This document shows positions 723 to 29,153 of a stretch of DNA of 64,000 bases, piece by piece. Numbering within the stretch: position 1 is the stretch's first letter; every line of letters starts with the position of its first letter. Both the position numbers and the translations under genes were made by a program. Below the pieces are notes generated by a model. It was given only the letters and a program-made list of their open reading frames with translations. It did not search any database and was not told the DNA's origin. Origin of the DNA: Brucella pseudogrignonensis (lineage in GTDB: Bacteria; Pseudomonadota; Alphaproteobacteria; Rhizobiales; Rhizobiaceae); the NCBI RefSeq assembly GCF_002252525.1, contig NZ_NNRM01000045.1:55756-119755 (forward strand), in the 5' to 3' direction.

Positions 723-1591
723 TTACCTCTTCGCTTAATCCAGAAGTCGGGAGAAGCGTTTTGCCTTTTCTCGACAGGTTTCACCCTGATCGCCCATTGG
801 AGGTAAACTTCTACCGACCAGCACACTATAAGCCGGGCAATCCTGTGGTTATTGTGCAGCATGGAATGCTACGCAACGGTGATGAGTACCGGGATTTCTG
901 GATAGCTGCTGCTGAAAAACACGGGCTATTGATTGCTGCGCCAACCTTCTCGGATGCAGCGTTCCCGATGGCTGAAAGCTATAATAATGGGCTTGTTTTA
1001 GATTCGGTTGGACGGGTTCGTGACCAGCAGGAATGGTTGTATGGGGTTCCTGCTCGGGTGTTTGCTGCATTGAAAGCATCTGGAGCAACCGACCAGGACA
1101 GCGCTTACCTTTATGGCCATTCCGCAGGTGGACAATTTGCACATCGCCTGCTCGCAACACAGCCGACTTACCCTTTTTGTGCGGTCATCGCTGCAAACCC
1201 GGGTTGGTATACATTGCCAGATATGGAGCGATCCTTTCCTGAAGGGATGGGGGGAGTTGGTTTGTCCGATGAACAACTCGCGCGCTGGTTTGCCTATCCA
1301 ATGCACATATTTGCTGGCGATCAGGATATCGTTGAAGACGATCCGAACCTTCCGTCTCAGCCCGAAGCATTAGCGCAAGGGCCTTCACGTTTTAAGCGCG
1401 CGCATTTTGTATATGCTTTTGCGATGGCGCAGGCCAAAAAGCGTGACCTGCCTTTCAATTGGAAACTAATAGACATTCAAGGTGTCGGTCATGACGGCGC
1501 TGCAATGTCTCGGGCTGCTGCAGCCTTTTGGTTTGAAGACAGAATTCCGCCTGCAAGTGAACTTGTTTTTGATGACGCAGCGCAGCTCTAG
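719..1591 (+). CDS. Alpha/beta hydrolase fold protein
   Basis: This 290-residue protein is a probable serine hydrolase of unknown substrate. It shows the nucleophile elbow GHSAG (Ser about 135), an oxyanion-type HG near residue 48, a candidate acid in AGDQDIVED (Asp about 201-203) and a candidate catalytic His in GVGHDG (about 258). No signal peptide is visible, so it is probably cytoplasmic. Its ATG overlaps the stop of the ABC ATPase gene, and the M20 amidohydrolase starts 21 bases downstream. The context suggests that it processes a compound brought in by the ABC importer, perhaps an ester or amide. That role is inference; the fold assignment is firm. Confidence 0.85.
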   Translation: MITSSLNPEVGRSVLPFLDRFHPDRPLEVNFYRPAHYKPGNPVVIVQHGMLRNGDEYRDFWIAAAEKHGLLIAAPTFSDAAFPMAESYNNGLVLDSVGRVRDQQEWLYGVPARVFAALKASGATDQDSAYLYGHSAGGQFAHRLLATQPTYPFCAVIAANPGWYTLPDMERSFPEGMGGVGLSDEQLARWFAYPMHIFAGDQDIVEDDPNLPSQPEALAQGPSRFKRAHFVYAFAMAQAKKRDLPFNWKLIDIQGVGHDGAAMSRAAAAFWFEDRIPPASELVFDDAAQL

Positions 1592-1612
1592 AAGCAGAAG
1601 TTGGAATGTGTG

Positions 1613-3037
1613 ATGAATGCAAATAATCGAATAGACCTCTGGCAAAAAGTCGATGATGAAAAAGAACGACTAATCGAGCTGAGTGATCGCGTTTGGGGCA
1701 TGCCGGAGGTGTGCTATACAGAATTTCGTTCCATGGCCGAACATAAAGCGGAGCTTCTGCATCATGGCTTTCGCGTCACGGAAGGGGTAGCAGACATTCC
1801 AACCTCCGTTATCGGTGAGGCGGGGCAGGGCGGACCAGTTATCGCATTTCTAGGCGAGTTTGATGCGCTTCCCGGTCTCAGCCAAGAGGCAGGCGTGGCC
1901 GAGTGCAGACCGTTGGAAGTTGGCGGCCATGGCCATGGCTGTGGGCATAATCTTCTTGGTTCTGGCGCTATGCTAGCCGCAATTGCGCTCAAGAATTACC
2001 TTGCCGAGAAAGGCATTGCTGGGCGCGTACGCTATTATGGTTGCCCTGCAGAAGAGGGTGGCGCGGCGAAAACCTTTATGGTTCGTTCAGGCGCATTCGA
2101 CGACGTGGATGTTGCGATCTCATGGCACCCTTACAGTTTCTGGGAAGTTGCGCCAGCACTTTCTCTCGCGAACACGCGTGCAGATTTCACGTTCAAAGGG
2201 CGTGCAGCCCATGCCGCAGCTGCACCCCATTTGGGGCGCAGTGCGCTTGACGCGCTTGAGCTGATGAGCGTCGGCGTCAATTATATGCGCGAGCATATGC
2301 CATCTGACGCGCGAGTCCACTCTGCAATTCTTGATACAGGTGGTATTGCGCCGAATGTTGTCCAAGCAAATGCGCGTGTTCGATATTCAATCCGCGCAAT
2401 GGAATTGCAGGACATGCATGATCTTGTTCATCGTGTGCATAAGATTGCGCAGGGTGCAGCCATGATGACTGAGACAACCGTCGAGATGAAAATAGTAAGC
2501 GCGGTATCCAATACGTTGGATAATAAGCCGCTGGAACACGCGCTCCACACGGCTATGGATGAATTGGGCGTACCCGATTTTGACAGTCAAGATCGTGCCT
2601 TTGCCCGTGAAATTCGGAAAACTTTCTCTGAAAAGGACATAGCCTCGGTCTATAAAGCGATAGGTTTGCCAATCACCGATGAGCCGCTCGCAAACTTCTT
2701 AACCCCCGAGAACACCAATCGTAAGCCATTCATCGGGTCGACTGATATAGGTGATGTGAGCTGGGTTGTCCCGACGGTTCAGGTACATGCCCCGACAGTC
2801 GCCATCGGCACGCCCTTTCATACGTGGCAGATTGTTGCCCAAGGTAAATCACCGGCAGCCCATAAGGCGATGGTGCATGCAGCAAAAGCGATGGCTGTTA
2901 CTGGACTGAATGTAATAACCGACCCGCTTTTGTTGAAAAATGCGAAAGCAGCGTTGGCAGAACATACGTCCAGAACACCCTACATTTCCCCGCTTGGTTC
3001 GGATGTCTCGCCACCATTGGATATGTCACGCGGATAG
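1613..3037 (+). CDS. M20 family amidohydrolase, AbgB-like
   Basis: This is a zinc-dependent amidohydrolase of peptidase family M20, closest in layout to AbgB, the p-aminobenzoyl-glutamate hydrolase subunit. The metal-binding motif HGHGCGHN lies near residues 106-113, followed by the catalytic/metal Glu pair in CPAEEGG, a His in SWHPYSF and a late His in GTPFHTWQ. The length (474 residues) fits AbgB. I chose ATG 1613; TTG 1601 and GTG 1610 are in frame just upstream. Being last in the ABC/hydrolase operon, it may cleave an imported N-acyl amino acid or folate breakdown product, but the exact substrate cannot be read from sequence. Confidence 0.87.
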   Translation: MNANNRIDLWQKVDDEKERLIELSDRVWGMPEVCYTEFRSMAEHKAELLHHGFRVTEGVADIPTSVIGEAGQGGPVIAFLGEFDALPGLSQEAGVAECRPLEVGGHGHGCGHNLLGSGAMLAAIALKNYLAEKGIAGRVRYYGCPAEEGGAAKTFMVRSGAFDDVDVAISWHPYSFWEVAPALSLANTRADFTFKGRAAHAAAAPHLGRSALDALELMSVGVNYMREHMPSDARVHSAILDTGGIAPNVVQANARVRYSIRAMELQDMHDLVHRVHKIAQGAAMMTETTVEMKIVSAVSNTLDNKPLEHALHTAMDELGVPDFDSQDRAFAREIRKTFSEKDIASVYKAIGLPITDEPLANFLTPENTNRKPFIGSTDIGDVSWVVPTVQVHAPTVAIGTPFHTWQIVAQGKSPAAHKAMVHAAKAMAVTGLNVITDPLLLKNAKAALAEHTSRTPYISPLGSDVSPPLDMSRG

Positions 3038-23895: not shown

Positions 23896-24051
23896 TGTGA
23901 TGATCCGGACGAGCTTGATACTGAAAATACTTAGATATCAAGAAGAGTGGGAACTCAACTACTTAGGAAAAATCTTTCAGCATCATCATGAATATTGTTG
24001 AATCAATCGTTCTTGGGCTAAAGCTCATATCTGTCGCCAGAGGAGATGAAT

Positions 24052-24477
24052 GTGAGCCAGCTAACCTATAACACTGTAGCCCGCTGCCCATCGGTGGAGG
24101 AATATTTGCATCTTCGTGCGGTGGCGGGCCTTAGCCCCTTCACGAAAGCCGCCGCTGCCAAAGGGCTCGAAGGCACGGTCTATTCTGTACTTGTTTTGCA
24201 CGATGGCTCTGCAATCGGAATGGGTCGGTTGATCGGGGATGGCGGTTGCTTTTTTCAGGTGGTGGATATTGCCGTTGAGCCGCAACATCAGGGGCGAGGC
24301 TTGGGCAAAGCCATCATGAGCGCCATCATGAACTATGTTAATACCGAACTTCCGTCTTCTGCCTATGTAAGCCTGATTGCTGATGTGCCAGCGAATAAGC
24401 TTTATGAGCAATTCGGCTTTAATGAAACTGCGCCACGATCCCTTGGAATGGCTTATCGCGTGAAGTCAGGGGCGTAA
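24052..24477 (+). CDS. GNAT family N-acetyltransferase
   Basis: This 141-residue protein carries the acetyl-CoA binding signature of GNAT enzymes (VAVEP-type strand VDIAVEPQHQGRGLGKAIMSA, with the Q/RxxGxG/A core QGRGLG). The C-terminal NKLYEQFGF is the usual last motif. GTG 24052 is preferred because AGGAG stands 6 bases before it; the ATG at 24046 lies almost on the ribosome site. The acceptor substrate is not known. Confidence 0.86.
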   Translation: MSQLTYNTVARCPSVEEYLHLRAVAGLSPFTKAAAAKGLEGTVYSVLVLHDGSAIGMGRLIGDGGCFFQVVDIAVEPQHQGRGLGKAIMSAIMNYVNTELPSSAYVSLIADVPANKLYEQFGFNETAPRSLGMAYRVKSGA

Positions 24478-24569
24478 TCGTCACTTTGCCGATCAGGGGC
24501 GCGGTCCGACAACAACATGATTGTTTGATCCTTTTCAATCGTTTATGCCTCACTTATTCGGAGGATCTT

Positions 24570-25025
24570 ATGAAATCTTTATTCACGTCTGCATTTGTAT
24601 CGGTTTTGGTTCTCGCATCCAGCTCGGCCTATGCTTTGGATGCTCAGAAAGATTGCTCCACGTTGAAGCAGGTCATCAAAGAATCGAAGATAAACTTCAA
24701 GAATGTTACAGCTGATGCAGCTCCCCAGGATGTGGATGTTTATCCATCAAAGCTCACATTAACCGGCAGCAATTCTTGCCGTGTTGTTCTGCGCACGAGC
24801 GTATCTTCGGTCAGCTGGTCGTGCGTTGTTGAAGATACGACCGTGAAAGCGGTTGCAGCTTTCGTTTCGAAATGCGTGGGCAAGCCTGAAACCCCTGATG
24901 CGGCGTATCAGAGGTCTGGCGCTAAAATCTTCCGTTTAAAGCCGCAGGTTCCCGCCGAGATCATTGTTTCGGAACTGGATCGCGGGAATATTGCCCTGCA
25001 AGTCAAAGCGCTGCAGAAGAAATAG
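24570..25025 (+). CDS. Small exported protein of unknown function
   Basis: This 151-residue protein begins with a signal peptide (MKSLFTSAFVSVLVLASSSA, cut after YA) preceded by a strong GGAGG at 24560-24564. The mature part has four Cys residues (DCS, SCRV, SWSCV, KCV) that could form two disulphides, as expected in the periplasm. No family is recognised. It lies between the acetyltransferase gene and the convergent metR gene, with no evident functional link. Confidence 0.75.
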   Translation: MKSLFTSAFVSVLVLASSSAYALDAQKDCSTLKQVIKESKINFKNVTADAAPQDVDVYPSKLTLTGSNSCRVVLRTSVSSVSWSCVVEDTTVKAVAAFVSKCVGKPETPDAAYQRSGAKIFRLKPQVPAEIIVSELDRGNIALQVKALQKK

Positions 25026-25066: not shown

Positions 25067-25960
25067 TCAAAGTTGCATTGATGCTTGCCGCGACGTCGCA
25101 AGGAATCCGTCGACAAAATCGATGGTTTCGTCACCGCTTCTTAGACCGAGATGAATGCTTTTCTGAATTCCCGTTTTGCCGATCCTGACGGGGTGAACGC
25201 CGAGTGTCTTTGCTTCTTGGCGCACCAGCCAGTTTGGAATGGCGCTGACGCCGCGGCCTGCCGCAACAAGTTGCAGCATCATTTCCGTAGTCTCGACATT
25301 TCGATGGTGCCGTGGGCGGCAATTGGCAGGCACCAGAAATTGCGTAAAGACATCAAGCCTTTCTGGTGGTACGGGATAAGTGAATAGGGTTTCCTCCAGC
25401 AAATTGGCAGGCTCTGCATTGTCCAGAAGCGATAAAGGATGACCGTCAGGAACGGCAAGCACGAGCTCGTAGTCGAACACTGGCACATAACGGATGCCGG
25501 AGGTCTCAATCGGATCTGGCGTAATCAGAATGTCGATTTCGTATCCCGTCAATGCTGCAACGCCGCCGGATGCAAATGATGTCGTTAGTTCCAGATCAAC
25601 ATCCGGCCATTCCACCAGGAAAGGCTTTGTTACACCCATCAGCCATTGATGGCAGGGATGACATTCCATCCCAATCCTGAGGGAGCCTCGCTGCCCGTAG
25701 CGATAATCTGATAAGACATCCTCCGCCCTTTCGATCTGTGGCAGAATGCGGTGTGCAAGTGTCACAATATAGCGTCCAGCCTCGGTGAGACGAAGATTGC
25801 GGCCATTCTTCTCCCACATGGCCACGCCATAGCGTTCTTCTAGCTTACGGATGGTGTGACTAAGCGCCGACTGTGTAACGTTCAGCTTTTCCGCCGCCGC
25901 CGTCAGGCTTCCCATGCGATCAACTTCGCGCAGGATTGACAGATGTTGTCTGTCCAGCAT
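25067..25960 (-). CDS. metR: LysR-family methionine regulator MetR
   Basis: This 297-residue LysR-type regulator has an N-terminal helix-turn-helix (GSLTAAAEKLNVTQSALSHT, about 17-36) and a ligand-binding domain that resembles enterobacterial MetR in its most telling stretches: MECHPCHQWL, the WP following it, SGIRYVPVFDYELVL and TYPVPPERLDVF. MetR senses homocysteine and activates methionine synthesis genes. ATG 25960 is chosen over GTG 25978 because GGCGGA stands 7 bases before it and the N-terminus then aligns with MetR. Upstream on the same strand is a cobalamin riboswitch, and divergent from it is the mesX-mesD operon, its obvious target. Confidence 0.88.
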   Translation of the reverse strand: MLDRQHLSILREVDRMGSLTAAAEKLNVTQSALSHTIRKLEERYGVAMWEKNGRNLRLTEAGRYIVTLAHRILPQIERAEDVLSDYRYGQRGSLRIGMECHPCHQWLMGVTKPFLVEWPDVDLELTTSFASGGVAALTGYEIDILITPDPIETSGIRYVPVFDYELVLAVPDGHPLSLLDNAEPANLLEETLFTYPVPPERLDVFTQFLVPANCRPRHHRNVETTEMMLQLVAAGRGVSAIPNWLVRQEAKTLGVHPVRIGKTGIQKSIHLGLRSGDETIDFVDGFLATSRQASMQL

Positions 25961-26107
25961 GATTATTTCCGCCTTCACTCATCTGTACTTGTCACCAGTA
26001 CAGCCATCAAATTTCAGCTGGGCGGTGAAATGGCGCAGAAACGACGGCACGGAATACCGGTCGCGAAAGCGGCACTCCGGGACACCCCGCCCGTGAACGT
26101 TATCTGA

Positions 26108-26280
26108 CGTGGCAGGTCTCCTGGCTCACGGGTAATCGCTCTCGTCCGTCTTCCCGGGGTAGACCCAGTGACAAAATTGGACGTTTGCTAACCGCTTACA
26201 GTTGCGGGGGCAGCTCCGGCGTTTGACCGAATTCCCTCTTAGCTACGGATTTAAATCCGCAGAACCACGACAGTGAACCA
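26108..26280 (-). ncRNA. Cobalamin riboswitch upstream of metR
   Basis: Read on the minus strand, the conserved elements appear in order: GGTTCTGC near the 5' end, AAGAGGGAA, the B12 box GCCCCCGCAACTGTAAGC (about 26195-26212), GTCACTG, CCCGGGAAG and the closing GAGCCAGGAGACCTGCC (26111-26127). These are the hallmarks of the AdoCbl-type aptamer. It ends about 150 bases before the metR start codon. No T-run terminator is visible in between. CCGCC (minus strand, 26021-26025) could pair with the GGCGG of the metR ribosome site (25969-25973), which would allow translational control. Such riboswitches normally switch genes off when B12 is plentiful. Confidence 0.92.
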
Positions 26281-26395
26281 ATGTCCTATGCCAACTGTCC
26301 GGTCAAGCCTTTCGGCCCATGGCTCATAACAATTGCGTCAAGCATTCATATTCGGGTGCGGTGTTCTGTCAAAGTCGGCCTAATCCGCCAACTTA

Positions 26396-26408
26396 TGAAC
26401 GTGGCTCA
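26396..26408 (+). promoter_or_regulatory. Candidate MetR-binding site
   Basis: TGAACGTGGCTCA agrees with the MetR consensus TGAA-N5-TTCA at seven of eight fixed positions. It lies between the riboswitch and the mesX start, about 180 bases before mesX, where an activator of the divergent operon or an autoregulator could bind. Confidence 0.4.
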
Positions 26409-26587
26409 TGCTTGTATGAAATGAAATCAATTTTAATCGTTCAACGCCTTCGGCATAAGAGGTTTAACGCTCTTATCCGAAGTCCGTATCAATACAGACT
26501 TTGCAGAAGGCCTGAGTAGAAATAGAAACTAAAGAAAGCAAAGACATCAAAGTGAATTTAAATCATAGATTGGGATGTCATGTCGCG

Positions 26588-27571
26588 ATGAATAGAGATT
26601 TTACATTCAACATTAAGAGTATTTGCTTTGATGAGGATTACCATCCCTCAGAAAATACTCGTATCACGACCAACTTTGCTAATTTGGCGAGAGGTAACAA
26701 TCGCCAAGAAAACCTGCGCAATGCACTCAGGATGATTGACAATCGTTTCAACGCTCTGGCGCATTGGGATAACCCGGAAGGCCATCGGTATTCGGTCGAA
26801 CTGGAAATCATTTCGGTTGAAATGAATATTGGTGCTGAAAGCAAGAACGATGCTTTCCCGGTGATTGAAATATTGAAAACCAATATCATGGATCGCAAGT
26901 CCGACGAGCGCATTGAGGGCATTGTCGGGAATAACTTCTCGTCCTACGTGCGAGATTACGACTTCAGCGTATTATTGCCAAAGCATAATAAGAATCGGCT
27001 TGAATTCAGCACGCCTGACAACTTCGGCGAATTGCATGGAAACCTCTTTAAATGTTTCCTAAATTCAAATGCTTATAAAGAGAACTTCAGTAAGCCGCCT
27101 GTAATATGTCTGAGTGCTTCAAGCAGCAAGACCTATCGTCGAACTGAAAATCAACACCCCGTATTAGGGGTTGAATACGAGCAGAACGAGTTCTCTTCGA
27201 CTGATCAATACTTCAAAAAAATGGGATTGGAGGTTCGATTTTTCATGCCTCCGAATAGTGTTGCGCCTTTGGCTTTCTATTTTATCGGCGATTTGCTTGC
27301 CGATTATACCAATCTTGAGCTGATCGGAACCATCAGTACGATGGAGACTTTCCAGAAGATCTATCGGCCCGAGATTTACAACGCCAACTCTGCGGCGGGC
27401 GCCTGCTATCAACCGGATTTGAAGCATCAGGACTATTCGCTGACACGAATTGTCTACGACCGCGAAGAGCGTAGCCGGTTGGCTGTCGAACAGGGCAAGT
27501 TTGCGGACGAGCACTTCATCAAACCATACAAGACCCTTCTTGAGGAATGGTTTGCCAATAGCGTTCATTGA
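26588..27571 (+). CDS. mesX: MesX (DUF1852), partner of folate-independent methionine synthase
   Basis: This 327-residue protein is a DUF1852 member (FNIKSICFDEDYHPSENTR, TTNFANLARGNNRQENLRN, MIDNRFNALAHWDN). DUF1852 proteins have been named MesX because they are needed by the MesD class of methionine synthase. There is no signal peptide. ATG 26588 fits the family start; a GTG at 26552 is in frame upstream. The gene is moderately A+T-rich and its stop lies 26 bases before the mesD ATG. Its biochemical role in the pair is not established; an oxygen- or flavin-linked step has been discussed for the system. Confidence 0.9.
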   Translation: MNRDFTFNIKSICFDEDYHPSENTRITTNFANLARGNNRQENLRNALRMIDNRFNALAHWDNPEGHRYSVELEIISVEMNIGAESKNDAFPVIEILKTNIMDRKSDERIEGIVGNNFSSYVRDYDFSVLLPKHNKNRLEFSTPDNFGELHGNLFKCFLNSNAYKENFSKPPVICLSASSSKTYRRTENQHPVLGVEYEQNEFSSTDQYFKKMGLEVRFFMPPNSVAPLAFYFIGDLLADYTNLELIGTISTMETFQKIYRPEIYNANSAAGACYQPDLKHQDYSLTRIVYDREERSRLAVEQGKFADEHFIKPYKTLLEEWFANSVH

Positions 27572-27597
27572 CGAACCAAAACACAAGGTTGCCTAGA

Positions 27598-28626
27598 ATG
27601 AAACCACTGTTGCCCACCTCAACGGCTGGCAGCTTGCCAAAACCAATCTGGCTTGCACAACCCGAGAAACTTTGGTCACCCTGGAAATTGCAGGATGAGG
27701 AATTAGCTGCTGGCAAACAGGACGCTCTGCGTTTGTCGCTGGACGACCAACAACAGGCAGGCATTGATATTGTCAGCGACGGCGAGCAGACGCGCCAACA
27801 TTTTGTCACGACCTTCATTGAGCATCTCAGCGGTGTCGACTTCGAGAAGCGCGAGACCGTCCGAATTCGCAATCGCTATGACGCAAGTGTGCCGACAGTT
27901 GTCGGCGCCATCTCACGTCCAAAACCTGTTTTTGTCGAAGATGCCAAATTCTTGCGTCAGCAGACGAAGCAGCCCATCAAATGGGCTTTGCCGGGTCCCA
28001 TGACCATGATTGATACGCTCTATGATGCTCATTATAAAAGCCGCGAAAAGCTGGCCTGGGAATTTGCCAAAGTCCTCAATGAAGAAGCCAAGGAGTTGGA
28101 GGCTGCTGGTGTCGATATCATCCAGTTCGACGAGCCGGCATTCAATGTTTTCTTCGATGAGGTAAACGACTGGGGCGTTGCAACGCTGGAAAAAGCAATG
28201 GAGGGACTTCAGTGTGAAACTGCTGTCCATATTTGCTATGGCTACGGTATCAAGGCCAACACCGACTGGAAGCAAACTCTCGGATCAGAATGGAGGCAAT
28301 ATGAAGAAACCTTCCCAAAACTGCAGAAATCCAGTGTCGATCTGATCTCTCTCGAATGCCATAATTCGCATGTTCCAATCGACTTGATCGAACTCATTCG
28401 AGGTAAAAAGGTTATGGTAGGGGCCATTGATGTGGCCAATAACGCGATCGAGACCCCTGAGGAAGTTGCCAATACTCTGCGGAAAGCACTGCAATTCGTG
28501 GATGCCGACAAGCTCTATCCCTGCACGAACTGTGGAATGGCGCCTTTGTCTCGTCGGGTGGCAACGGGCAAGCTGAAGGCTTTAACTGCGGGTGCTGAAA
28601 TTATCAGAAGAGAGCTTTCGGCTTAG
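27598..28626 (+). CDS. mesD: MesD, folate-independent methionine synthase (core MetE)
   Basis: This 342-residue protein equals only the C-terminal catalytic half of cobalamin-independent methionine synthase MetE (about 750 residues) and lacks the N-terminal half that helps bind methyl-tetrahydrofolate. Zinc ligands are in place: His and Cys in VHICYG, Glu in SLECHNSH, Cys in PCTNCGMAPL. Being beside mesX marks it as MesD. It should methylate homocysteine to methionine with a methyl donor other than folate. ATG 27598 is preceded by AAGG at 9 bases; a TTG at 27568 overlapping the mesX stop is the alternative. Expression is probably under MetR. Confidence 0.88.
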   Translation: MKPLLPTSTAGSLPKPIWLAQPEKLWSPWKLQDEELAAGKQDALRLSLDDQQQAGIDIVSDGEQTRQHFVTTFIEHLSGVDFEKRETVRIRNRYDASVPTVVGAISRPKPVFVEDAKFLRQQTKQPIKWALPGPMTMIDTLYDAHYKSREKLAWEFAKVLNEEAKELEAAGVDIIQFDEPAFNVFFDEVNDWGVATLEKAMEGLQCETAVHICYGYGIKANTDWKQTLGSEWRQYEETFPKLQKSSVDLISLECHNSHVPIDLIELIRGKKVMVGAIDVANNAIETPEEVANTLRKALQFVDADKLYPCTNCGMAPLSRRVATGKLKALTAGAEIIRRELSA

Positions 28627-28652
28627 TTGTGGCTGGGCAGCAGGAGGCCGAC

Positions 28653-29153
28653 ATGAATATGGTGGAACGCCGGTTCCACATTGTAGATAAAGCCACGTTT
28701 CGTAATGGCATGTCACGGCTGGGTTCGGCGGTAAGTGTCACCAGCACAAAGTTCGGCGGGAAGCGTTACGGCTTTACCGCCTCCGCTGTCTGCAGTGTCA
28801 GCGACACTCCAGCGACACTGCTTGTCTGCCTTAATCGGGAGAGCTCGTGTTTTCATGCCTTTGAGAACGCGCGCTATTTCTGCGTCAACACATTGATGCC
28901 CGGCCAGGAGGATATCTCGAACCACTTCGGTGGTAAGACGTCGGTGGAGGACCGGTTCGCCTATGGGGAATGGGTGGAGGGACTCACTGGAGTTCCGGTC
29001 CTTGCCAGTGCTTCGGTCAGCTTTGAGTGCGAATTAACAAATGCCGTCGATGAGGCCACACACCGCATCCTTTTTGGGCGCGTAATCGATATTCGTGAGA
29101 ATGAAAAACAAGCAGCGCTGCTCTATTGTATGCGTCGCTACCTCAGTGTTTAG
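28653..29153 (+). CDS. Flavin reductase family protein
   Basis: This 166-residue protein belongs to the FMN-binding flavin reductase-like (DIM6/NTAB, HpaC-type) family, with FRNGMSRLGSAVSVTSTK, YGFTASAVCSVSDTPATLLVC and NRESSCFHAFENARYFCVN. Such enzymes give reduced flavin to a partner oxygenase. It follows mesD by 26 bases with GGAGG before ATG 28653 (GTG 28629 is an in-frame alternative), so it probably belongs to the mesX-mesD operon and may supply FMNH2 to that system. That supply role is inference from gene order. Confidence 0.85.
   Translation: MNMVERRFHIVDKATFRNGMSRLGSAVSVTSTKFGGKRYGFTASAVCSVSDTPATLLVCLNRESSCFHAFENARYFCVNTLMPGQEDISNHFGGKTSVEDRFAYGEWVEGLTGVPVLASASVSFECELTNAVDEATHRILFGRVIDIRENEKQAALLYCMRRYLSV

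What the first reader, a model, noticed from the sequence alone, without database searches (positions are those of the whole stretch)
25067..29153. Cobalamin riboswitch in front of metR, divergent from a B12-independent mesX-mesD methionine operon
Cobalamin riboswitches usually control B12 synthesis, transport or B12-independent isozyme genes directly. Here the aptamer (minus strand, 26108-26280) reads into metR, and the operon for the alternative methionine synthase lies on the other strand. This suggests a relay in which B12 stops MetR production, and lack of MetR then stops the folate-independent enzyme. Elements seen: the aptamer boxes, MetR signatures, MesX/MesD families and a possible MetR site.
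Basis: partly seen in the sequence, partly recalled or inferred. Interest (0 to 1): 0.75.

Follow-up and report, generated by a model that had tools for sequence, protein, structure and literature searches.

The report
B12 riboswitch acting through MetR regulator
In this bacterium a vitamin B12-sensing RNA sits in front of the gene for a MetR-like activator instead of in front of the backup methionine enzyme it probably controls, and close relatives wire the same vitamin straight to that enzyme.

Summary
A full-length cobalamin aptamer lies at 26094-26284 (-) (RF00174, 134.1 bits, E 1.4e-33). A recognisable L13 kissing-loop element follows, then only a MetR-like LysR gene (25067-25960). mesX-mesD-flavin reductase diverge from it.

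Comparison supports a relay. Thirteen loci share the layout, with the same metR promoter-like block directly upstream of the aptamer (13 of 13) and a MetR-type operator in front of mesX (strict form 12 of 13, against 0 of 10 directly wired loci). In the window's genus (35 genomes searched) each of the 9 genomes with more than a mesX fragment has a cobalamin aptamer on this system: 3 through metR, 6 directly on mesX; the close MetR occurs only in those 3. The two aptamer types cluster apart. In seven relay relatives a thioesterase gene sits between aptamer and metR; in six it is shortened or gone, while aptamer and metR stay.

The causal chain (B12 lowers MetR, hence mesXD) is inferred; a two-state folding test of the expression platform was inconclusive. 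MetR control of mesX-mesD (as PF08908-metE2) and direct cobalamin control of B12-independent isozymes are in print; my searches did not turn up the B12-to-MetR link. New variant of a known kind.

The parts
25067..25960 (-). metR-like LysR-type regulator gene (ATG 25960; ORF opens at GTG 25978)
   Evidence: LysR HTH and substrate domains; best NCBIfam match MetR 187.7 bits, below cut-off; closest solved structures 4ab5/4ab6, labelled LysR family
25969..25973 (-). probable metR Shine-Dalgarno GGCGG
   Evidence: by eye in GAAGGCGGAAATAATCATG, 25958-25976
26020..26027 (-). CACCGCCC, candidate element that could pair with L13 or with the metR SD
   Evidence: sequence; two-state folding inconclusive
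26077..26094 (-). P13/L13 element ACGGGCGGGGTGTCCCGG, complementary to aptamer L5
   Evidence: GGGCGGGG in 13 of 13 relay and 9 of 10 direct loci aligned; GCGGGG is the complement of CCCCGC in L5
26094..26284 (-). cobalamin riboswitch aptamer
   Evidence: RF00174, 134.1 bits, E 1.4e-33
26204..26214 (-). aptamer L5 region GCTGCCCCCGC
   Evidence: position; L5-L13 kissing loop as described in PMC9600662 (passages)
26278..26307 (-). probable metR promoter CTTGACC-N16-ACATTG, reading into the aptamer
   Evidence: same elements and spacing in 13 of 13 relay loci; position; not found by the consensus scan
26395..26409 (+). MetR-type operator site 1, ATGAACGTGGCTCAT
   Evidence: conserved footprint in relay loci and two Bosea loci
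26416..26430 (+). MetR-type operator site 2, ATGAAATGAAATCAA, 21 bp from site 1
   Evidence: tandem found, with a looser pattern, in 14 of 15 loci
26453..26459 (+). possible mesX -10 (GCATAAG)
   Evidence: by eye in the alignments; inference
26588..27571 (+). mesX (PF08908, putative oxygenase; ORF opens at GTG 26552)
   Evidence: MesX 631.6 bits; start chosen by eye
27598..28626 (+). mesD, folate-independent methionine synthase (ORF opens at TTG 27568)
   Evidence: NF006589 700.2 bits, cut-off 392; start chosen by eye
28629..29153 (+). flavin reductase gene, third gene of the operon
   Evidence: PF01613 127.1 bits

Best explanation
A two-step vitamin B12 relay. metR is transcribed from its own promoter (CTTGACC-N16-ACATTG) straight into a cobalamin aptamer. 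When B12 binds, the L5-L13 kissing loop forms and metR expression falls, most likely at translation (inferred). When B12 is short, MetR is made, and if homocysteine has piled up because MetH is idle (MetR's inducer in enteric bacteria, from the literature) it binds the tandem operator at the mesX promoter and switches on mesX-mesD-flavin reductase. Net logic: mesXD on only if B12 is low AND homocysteine is high. Shown: the sequence parts, their conservation and their co-occurrence. Inferred: ligand binding, direction and size of each regulatory step.
For: Aptamer 134.1 bits. No other gene between aptamer and metR; the next ORFs past metR (24486-25025, 24046-24477) run the other way. The genome has full-length MetH (1762 bits) and no MetE beyond MesD itself, so mesXD is the only B12-independent methionine synthase detected. 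Its four other cobalamin riboswitches sit on expected B12 genes: class I ribonucleotide reductase, a TonB receptor with a B12-type binding protein, a second such binding protein, and cbtA-cobU-cobW. Relay layout in 13 loci, all confirmed by cmscan (G143 scanned as L101). Promoter block 13 of 13. Operator: mean information 1.44 bits per base against 0.51 upstream and 0.86 downstream, n=14 of 15; strict site upstream of the aptamer in 12 of 13 relay and 0 of 10 direct loci; one strict tandem match in the whole own genome, none for the control pattern. Close MetR (88% or more) in exactly the 3 relay genomes of 35 in the genus; 6 others with mesX carry the aptamer on mesX itself. Relay aptamers cluster (2 changes, shuffled mean 10.4). 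Thioesterase gene between aptamer and metR intact in 7 relay loci, shortened in 2, gone in 4, aptamer and metR kept in all 13.
Against: Two-state folding does not show convincing L13-dependent occlusion of the metR SD: window change 0.13 with 19 of 150 shuffled linkers as large; L116 63/150; L013 66/150; only L012 1/150. Eight direct loci also failed this test (12 to 88 of 100 shuffles as large), so it is weak either way; the other nine relay loci were not tested. MetR equivalog cut-off not met. The consensus scan does not call the proposed metR promoter. The ancestral target of the riboswitch may have been the thioesterase. I found no expression data for a relay organism. No ligand test. Loci are related, so counts are not independent events.
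Confidence: 0.72

Rival explanations
1. Leftover switch: the riboswitch evolved to control the thioesterase gene that sits between it and metR in relatives. Where that gene is deleted, as here, the aptamer persists but metR is no longer effectively controlled by B12.
For: Seven relay loci keep an intact thioesterase ORF right behind the aptamer; the folding test gives little support for control of the metR start in the window.
Against: The window aptamer scores 134.1 bits, within the 127.8-135.9 range of the seven with the intact thioesterase gene; L13 and the promoter block are kept; different kinds of shortening or loss all keep the aptamer leader on metR; six same-genus relatives have B12 aptamers on mesX by another route.
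Confidence: 0.13
2. B12 does control metR, but MetR here mainly serves other genes; mesXD follows another regulator or is constitutive.
For: MetR regulons in other proteobacteria include metH, metF and glyA (PMC4239095, section 7 read).
Against: The only strict tandem match in the own genome is at mesX (single or degenerate sites would be missed); the same footprint is at mesX in two Bosea loci with metR and no aptamer.
Confidence: 0.07
3. Homocysteine alone sets mesXD; the riboswitch only trims MetR level with no real effect on output, because MetH activity in the presence of B12 already removes the inducer.
For: In Acinetobacter baumannii the MesX gene falls about 2^-8 with methylcobalamin (PMC12892962, passages), yet the mesX loci of two other Acinetobacter species show no cobalamin aptamer in about 11 kb (L029, L031), so another route can suffice.
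Against: It would not explain why cobalamin aptamers were attached to this system, perhaps twice.
Confidence: 0.08

Closest known systems
MetR-metE and MetR-PF08908-metE2 regulons (Leyn et al. 2014, PMC4239095; sections 7 and 8 read, passages elsewhere)
   Same: MetR divergent from a B12-independent methionine synthase; 15-bp palindrome ATGAA-N5-TTCAT; PF08908-metE2 is mesX-mesD
   Different: That paper places alphaproteobacterial MetR only in Rhodobacterales, and the passages and sections seen put no cobalamin riboswitch on metR
Cobalamin riboswitches directly on B12-independent isozyme genes (PMC3766115, passages)
   Same: Same ligand logic, same kind of end target
   Different: Here the aptamer is on the regulator; the enzyme operon is on the other strand with no aptamer of its own
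Listeria B12 riboswitch, AspocR and PocR (PMC8079631, passages)
   Same: A B12 riboswitch governs a transcription factor, which governs B12-related genes
   Different: There it terminates an antisense RNA to pocR, so B12 raises PocR; here the aptamer is in the sense leader and should lower MetR
MesD/MesX folate-independent methionine synthase (Price et al. 2021, PMC7857596, passages)
   Same: MesX, MesD and a nearby flavin reductase
   Different: The held text has no occurrence of 'riboswitch' and one word beginning 'regulat'

Membership tests
Cobalamin riboswitch (RF00174) | Covariance model match over the gathering score | tested here: met
   134.1 bits, cut-off 31.5, full length
Cobalamin riboswitch (RF00174) | L13 element complementary to L5 | tested here: met
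   GCGGGG in 26077-26094 against CCCCGC in 26204-26214; complementarity only, no structure test
Cobalamin riboswitch (RF00174) | Binds cobalamin and changes expression of the downstream gene | not testable with these tools
   needs probing or a reporter
Translational OFF switch on metR | Ligand-dependent occlusion of the metR SD | tested here: inconclusive
   window 19 of 150 shuffles as strong; L012 1, L116 63, L013 66 of 150
MetR (NF011950 equivalog) | Score over the curated cut-off | tested here: not met
   187.7 bits, cut-off 382; still the best NCBIfam match
MetR-type regulation | ATGAA-N5-TTCAT-type palindrome at the target promoter | tested here: met
   tandem, each with one mismatch to TGAA-N5-TTCA, conserved
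MetR-type regulation | Homocysteine-responsive activation | not testable with these tools
   literature property of enteric MetR
MesX (PF08908) | Score over gathering | tested here: met
   631.6 bits, cut-off 25
MesD (NF006589) | Score over cut-off, beside mesX | tested here: met
   700.2 bits, cut-off 392; mesX and mesD ORFs adjoin

The most novel reading that the evidence does not exclude
One genus holds two evolved circuits with the same input and output: a B12 riboswitch directly on mesXD (next to a SahR-like palindrome), and a B12 riboswitch on a captured MetR activator that then controls mesXD. The riboswitches look separately recruited, and the relay keeps the MetR connection while an intervening thioesterase gene decays. 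That would be a natural rewiring experiment, with the relay adding a homocysteine gate and a delay.
Probability: 0.55. Interest if true: 0.68.

Novelty: new variant of a known kind. Interest (0 to 1): 0.55.

Why it matters
Riboswitches are normally read as one-step switches on metabolic genes. Here the RNA sensor very likely acts on an activator that itself senses the pathway intermediate, giving a B12-and-homocysteine gate on an oxygen-dependent, cobalamin-free methionine synthase. Because relatives in the same genus wire B12 directly to the same operon, the cost and benefit of a relay can be compared almost gene for gene. It also means that B12 regulons drawn only from the genes right behind aptamers will miss targets such as mesXD in these strains.

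Tried and rejected
Single-site MetR motif search: rejected as evidence on its own, 34 one-mismatch matches against 32.4 expected; only conservation and co-occurrence count.

Two-state folding of expression platforms (L13 held open or free, linker shuffles): inconclusive for 4 relay loci (window, L116, L012, L013) and 8 direct loci. The other nine relay loci, including L115, L008 and the seven with the thioesterase gene, were not tested (L115 and L008 were, which timed out). By eye the L13 / anti-SD / SD pairing looks attractive and seems to co-vary between the window (CCGCC / GGCGG) and L116 (CTGCCC / GGGCAG), but I do not count that as shown.

Intrinsic terminator: two terminator-like hits in 25900-26600, one of them on the minus strand in the metR leader (26059-26045), against a shuffled mean of 0.8; not argued.

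MesX protein tree: too poorly resolved to count switches between wirings (relay 5 changes, shuffled mean 10.9; 15 of 33 inner branches open). The aptamer tree is also weak: bootstrap not settled, long branches joined, relay rows unresolved at its base. I use it only for clustering of the two types.

The pattern scan for the B12 box missed the direct aptamer of G122, found later by cmscan (L096, L123). So '10 relay and 3 direct of 80 named loci' is a lower bound; of the other 67 loci only L018, L021, L023, L029 and L031 were put through cmscan, and none of these five has a cobalamin match. L117's frame-broken mesX and the fragment in G123 were left out of the MesX tree; L118 was left out as the same record as L015.

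Order-wide sampling with MesX (2 of 397, own genome included) and MetR (7 of 397, own included) showed only that the system is patchy.

On recheck I first called the own-genome ribonucleotide reductase genes nrdAB; searches show an NrdI-like ORF before them, so class Ib (nrdIEF type) is the better reading. The notebook and the row label 'ownnrdAB' still bear the old name.
Full report
WHAT IS THERE. The cobalamin aptamer is unambiguous: RF00174, 26284-26094 on the minus strand, 134.1 bits, E 1.4e-33, all model positions. Behind it come 133 bases of leader and an ATG at 25960 that opens a 297-residue LysR protein. NCBIfam's best match is MetR (187.7 bits), well under the equivalog cut-off of 382; the closest solved structures are 4ab5 and 4ab6, labelled LysR family (I recall these as a neisserial MetR). 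On the other strand lie MesX (PF08908, 631.6 bits), MesD (NF006589, 700.2 bits, cut-off 392) and a flavin reductase. Price et al. showed in E. coli that MesD makes methionine without 5-methyl-THF and needs MesX and oxygen, and noted a putative flavin reductase often encoded nearby (PMC7857596, passages).

THE GENOME. The window lies in a 5.53 Mb genome in 53 contigs with five cobalamin riboswitch matches. The other four precede a class I ribonucleotide reductase set with an NrdI-like gene, a TonB receptor with a periplasmic binding protein and ABC genes, a second periplasmic binding protein with ABC genes, and cbtA-cobU-cobW (some names read from the ORFs by eye). MetH is present at full length (1762 bits). 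A full MetE is absent; the only match is MesD itself. So mesXD is the sole B12-independent methionine synthase detected. The genus is that of Ochrobactrum sp. RH2CCR150: the contig of same-genus G124 that carries mesX has the same length, 43,230 bases, as that strain's JACGXE010000025.1. The window's own species and habitat are not known to me.

COMPARISON. Thirteen loci have the aptamer on the metR strand facing away from mesX: the window, L116 (G136), L115/L101 (G143), L006-L013, L016 and L020, every one confirmed by cmscan. In ten other loci the aptamer lies on the mesX strand directly upstream of mesX (L015, L033, L048, L091, L093, L094, L117, L120, L121, L122), and cmscan adds G122 (L096/L123). 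Within the window's genus, MesX is found in 10 of 35 genomes. One (G123) is a fragment. Each of the other nine carries a cobalamin aptamer on the system: three by relay (G000, G136, G143), six directly (G122, G124, G128, G129, G142, G144). Two of the six are poorer assemblies (G122 85%, G128 69% complete), and G128's mesX is frame-broken. A close MetR (88% or more) occurs in exactly the three relay genomes; G124 has a 63% relative on another contig. MetH passes its cut-off in 34 of 35 genomes and MetE in 14 of 35.

PROMOTERS AND OPERATOR. Upstream of the aptamer all 13 relay loci have CTTGACC-N16-[AG]CATTG (26307-26278 in the window). A start 7 bases on would fall at the 5' edge of the aptamer's core stem, so metR should be read through the aptamer. 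A consensus scan found no sigma-70-like site on the minus strand in 25900-26600, neither this one nor one inside 25961-26107. In front of mesX there is a tandem of two 15-bp near-palindromes 21 bp apart, ATGAACGTGGCTCAT (26395-26409) and ATGAAATGAAATCAA (26416-26430). It is kept in relay loci and in two Bosea loci that have metR but no aptamer. Mean information is 1.44 bits per base in the tandem, 0.51 upstream and 0.86 downstream (n=14 of 15; L010 was dropped because its second site begins GTGA). The strict form ATGA-N7-TCAT is found in the 550 bases upstream of the aptamer in 12 of 13 relay loci (not L011) and 0 of 10 direct ones. In the whole own genome the strict tandem pattern has one match, this one, and its control none. 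Leyn et al. give the MetR consensus as ATGAA-N5-TTCAT and list PF08908-metE2 among well-conserved MetR targets, but place alphaproteobacterial MetR only in Rhodobacterales (PMC4239095, section 7). Nine of ten direct loci searched carry instead an AGATATAAACATTTCTTTAT-type palindrome (L091 misses the strict pattern; L033 was not in that search); it resembles the palindrome upstream of metH in L107, and from memory I take it as SahR-like.

THE THIOESTERASE. In L006, L007, L009, L010, L011, L016 and L020 an ORF of about 300 to 355 codons lies between aptamer and metR, its stop within a few bases of the metR start. The L006 protein has two 4HBT hot-dog stretches. In L008 and L115 it is shortened, with pieces of both ends recognisable (in L115 only by eye); in the window, L116, L012 and L013 no such gene is left. 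The own genome has no full copy, only a 34% partial match elsewhere. Yet aptamer, L13 element, promoter block and metR remain in all 13. This argues that metR is a selected target of the switch. A tempting guess for the thioesterase is relief of acyl-CoA build-up when B12-dependent mutases stall; nothing here tests that.

HOW THE SWITCH MAY WORK. After the aptamer, the 13 relay loci and 9 of 10 direct loci (not L033) share, with a few base changes, TAACGTCCACGGGCGGGGTGTCCCGG, whose GCGGGG is complementary to CCCCGC of L5, the known kissing partners (PMC9600662, passages). Much the same string follows the ribonucleotide reductase riboswitch of this genome (L086), so it is not special to metR. 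In the window the L13 strand could pair with CACCGCCC (26027-26020), which could otherwise pair with the metR SD GGCGG; this would be a translational OFF switch. I tested it by folding with L13 free or held: SD accessibility falls from 0.43 to 0.31 in the window, as large in 19 of 150 shuffled linkers; results elsewhere were 1/150 (L012), 63/150 (L116) and 66/150 (L013), and eight direct loci also gave nothing clear. So the mode of control is open.

ORIGIN. In a tree of 32 aptamers the relay type needs 2 changes (shuffled mean 10.4) and the direct type 2 (shuffled mean 9.4); ten of eleven direct aptamers group together (86/81) and with ribonucleotide reductase aptamers (87/93) rather than with relay ones, while relay rows are unresolved at the base and the bootstrap had not settled. 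This suggests, without proving, that B12 control of mesXD was put in place twice, by different routes. The MesX tree itself is too weak to count transfers. The system is patchy (5 of 121 in the family sample; 2 of 397 in the order sample; own genome included in both), so horizontal transfer is likely.

OUTSIDE EVIDENCE. In A. baumannii the MesX gene falls by log2 8.33 and 8.07 in two strains on B12 (PMC12892962, passages), which shows that B12 shuts this enzyme's gene down in at least one species, though the mesX loci of two other Acinetobacter species examined here have no cobalamin aptamer. A Rhizobium strain appears to escape nitrous oxide, which inactivates MetH, through MesD (PMC13059711, passages).

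IN PRINT? Searches listed no paper whose title or abstract opening describes a cobalamin riboswitch on metR. I opened passages of only some of the papers listed, and subscription journals are mostly missing from the library, so this is not proof of absence. The nearest principle is Listeria's B12 riboswitch on the antisense RNA of pocR (PMC8079631, passages).

VERDICT. The finding is real and the relay is the best reading (0.72), with every regulatory step still to be measured. It is a new variant of known parts, made interesting by the same genus holding both wirings.

Noticed in passing
L006, L007, L009, L010, L011, L016, L020: between aptamer and metR: An acyl-CoA thioesterase-like ORF (4HBT domains tested on L006) sits directly behind a cobalamin aptamer in seven relatives, an unexpected B12 riboswitch target; shortened in two and gone in four other relay loci.
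   Followed up: partly
L117 (G128) 2469-2657 (-) and 1420-2544 (-): A second cobalamin aptamer, back to back with the mesX one, reads into a QueH-family gene, recalled as the B12-free replacement for the B12-dependent epoxyqueuosine reductase QueG.
   Followed up: partly
L011 7810-8035 (+), L012 3219-3440 (-), L013 1743-1964 (-): In three relay loci a further cobalamin aptamer precedes NrdI- and ribonucleotide reductase-like genes (domains tested on L012) near mesXD-metR, so B12-independent backups cluster together.
   Followed up: partly
Upstream of the aptamer in direct loci such as L015 4578, L120 2841, L121 3017: A 20-bp palindrome of the AGATATAAACATTTCTTTAT type, SahR-like from memory, is found in 9 of 10 direct loci searched, where the MetR operator is missing.
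   Followed up: partly
L019: A contig labelled Bacillus subtilis SK6B4 carries a mesX gene nearly identical to that of Pseudochrobactrum (L018); probably a mislabelled or contaminated assembly.
   Followed up: no
L029, L031 (Acinetobacter): No cobalamin aptamer found in these two mesX loci although a related species represses MesX strongly with B12; its route is unknown to me.
   Followed up: no
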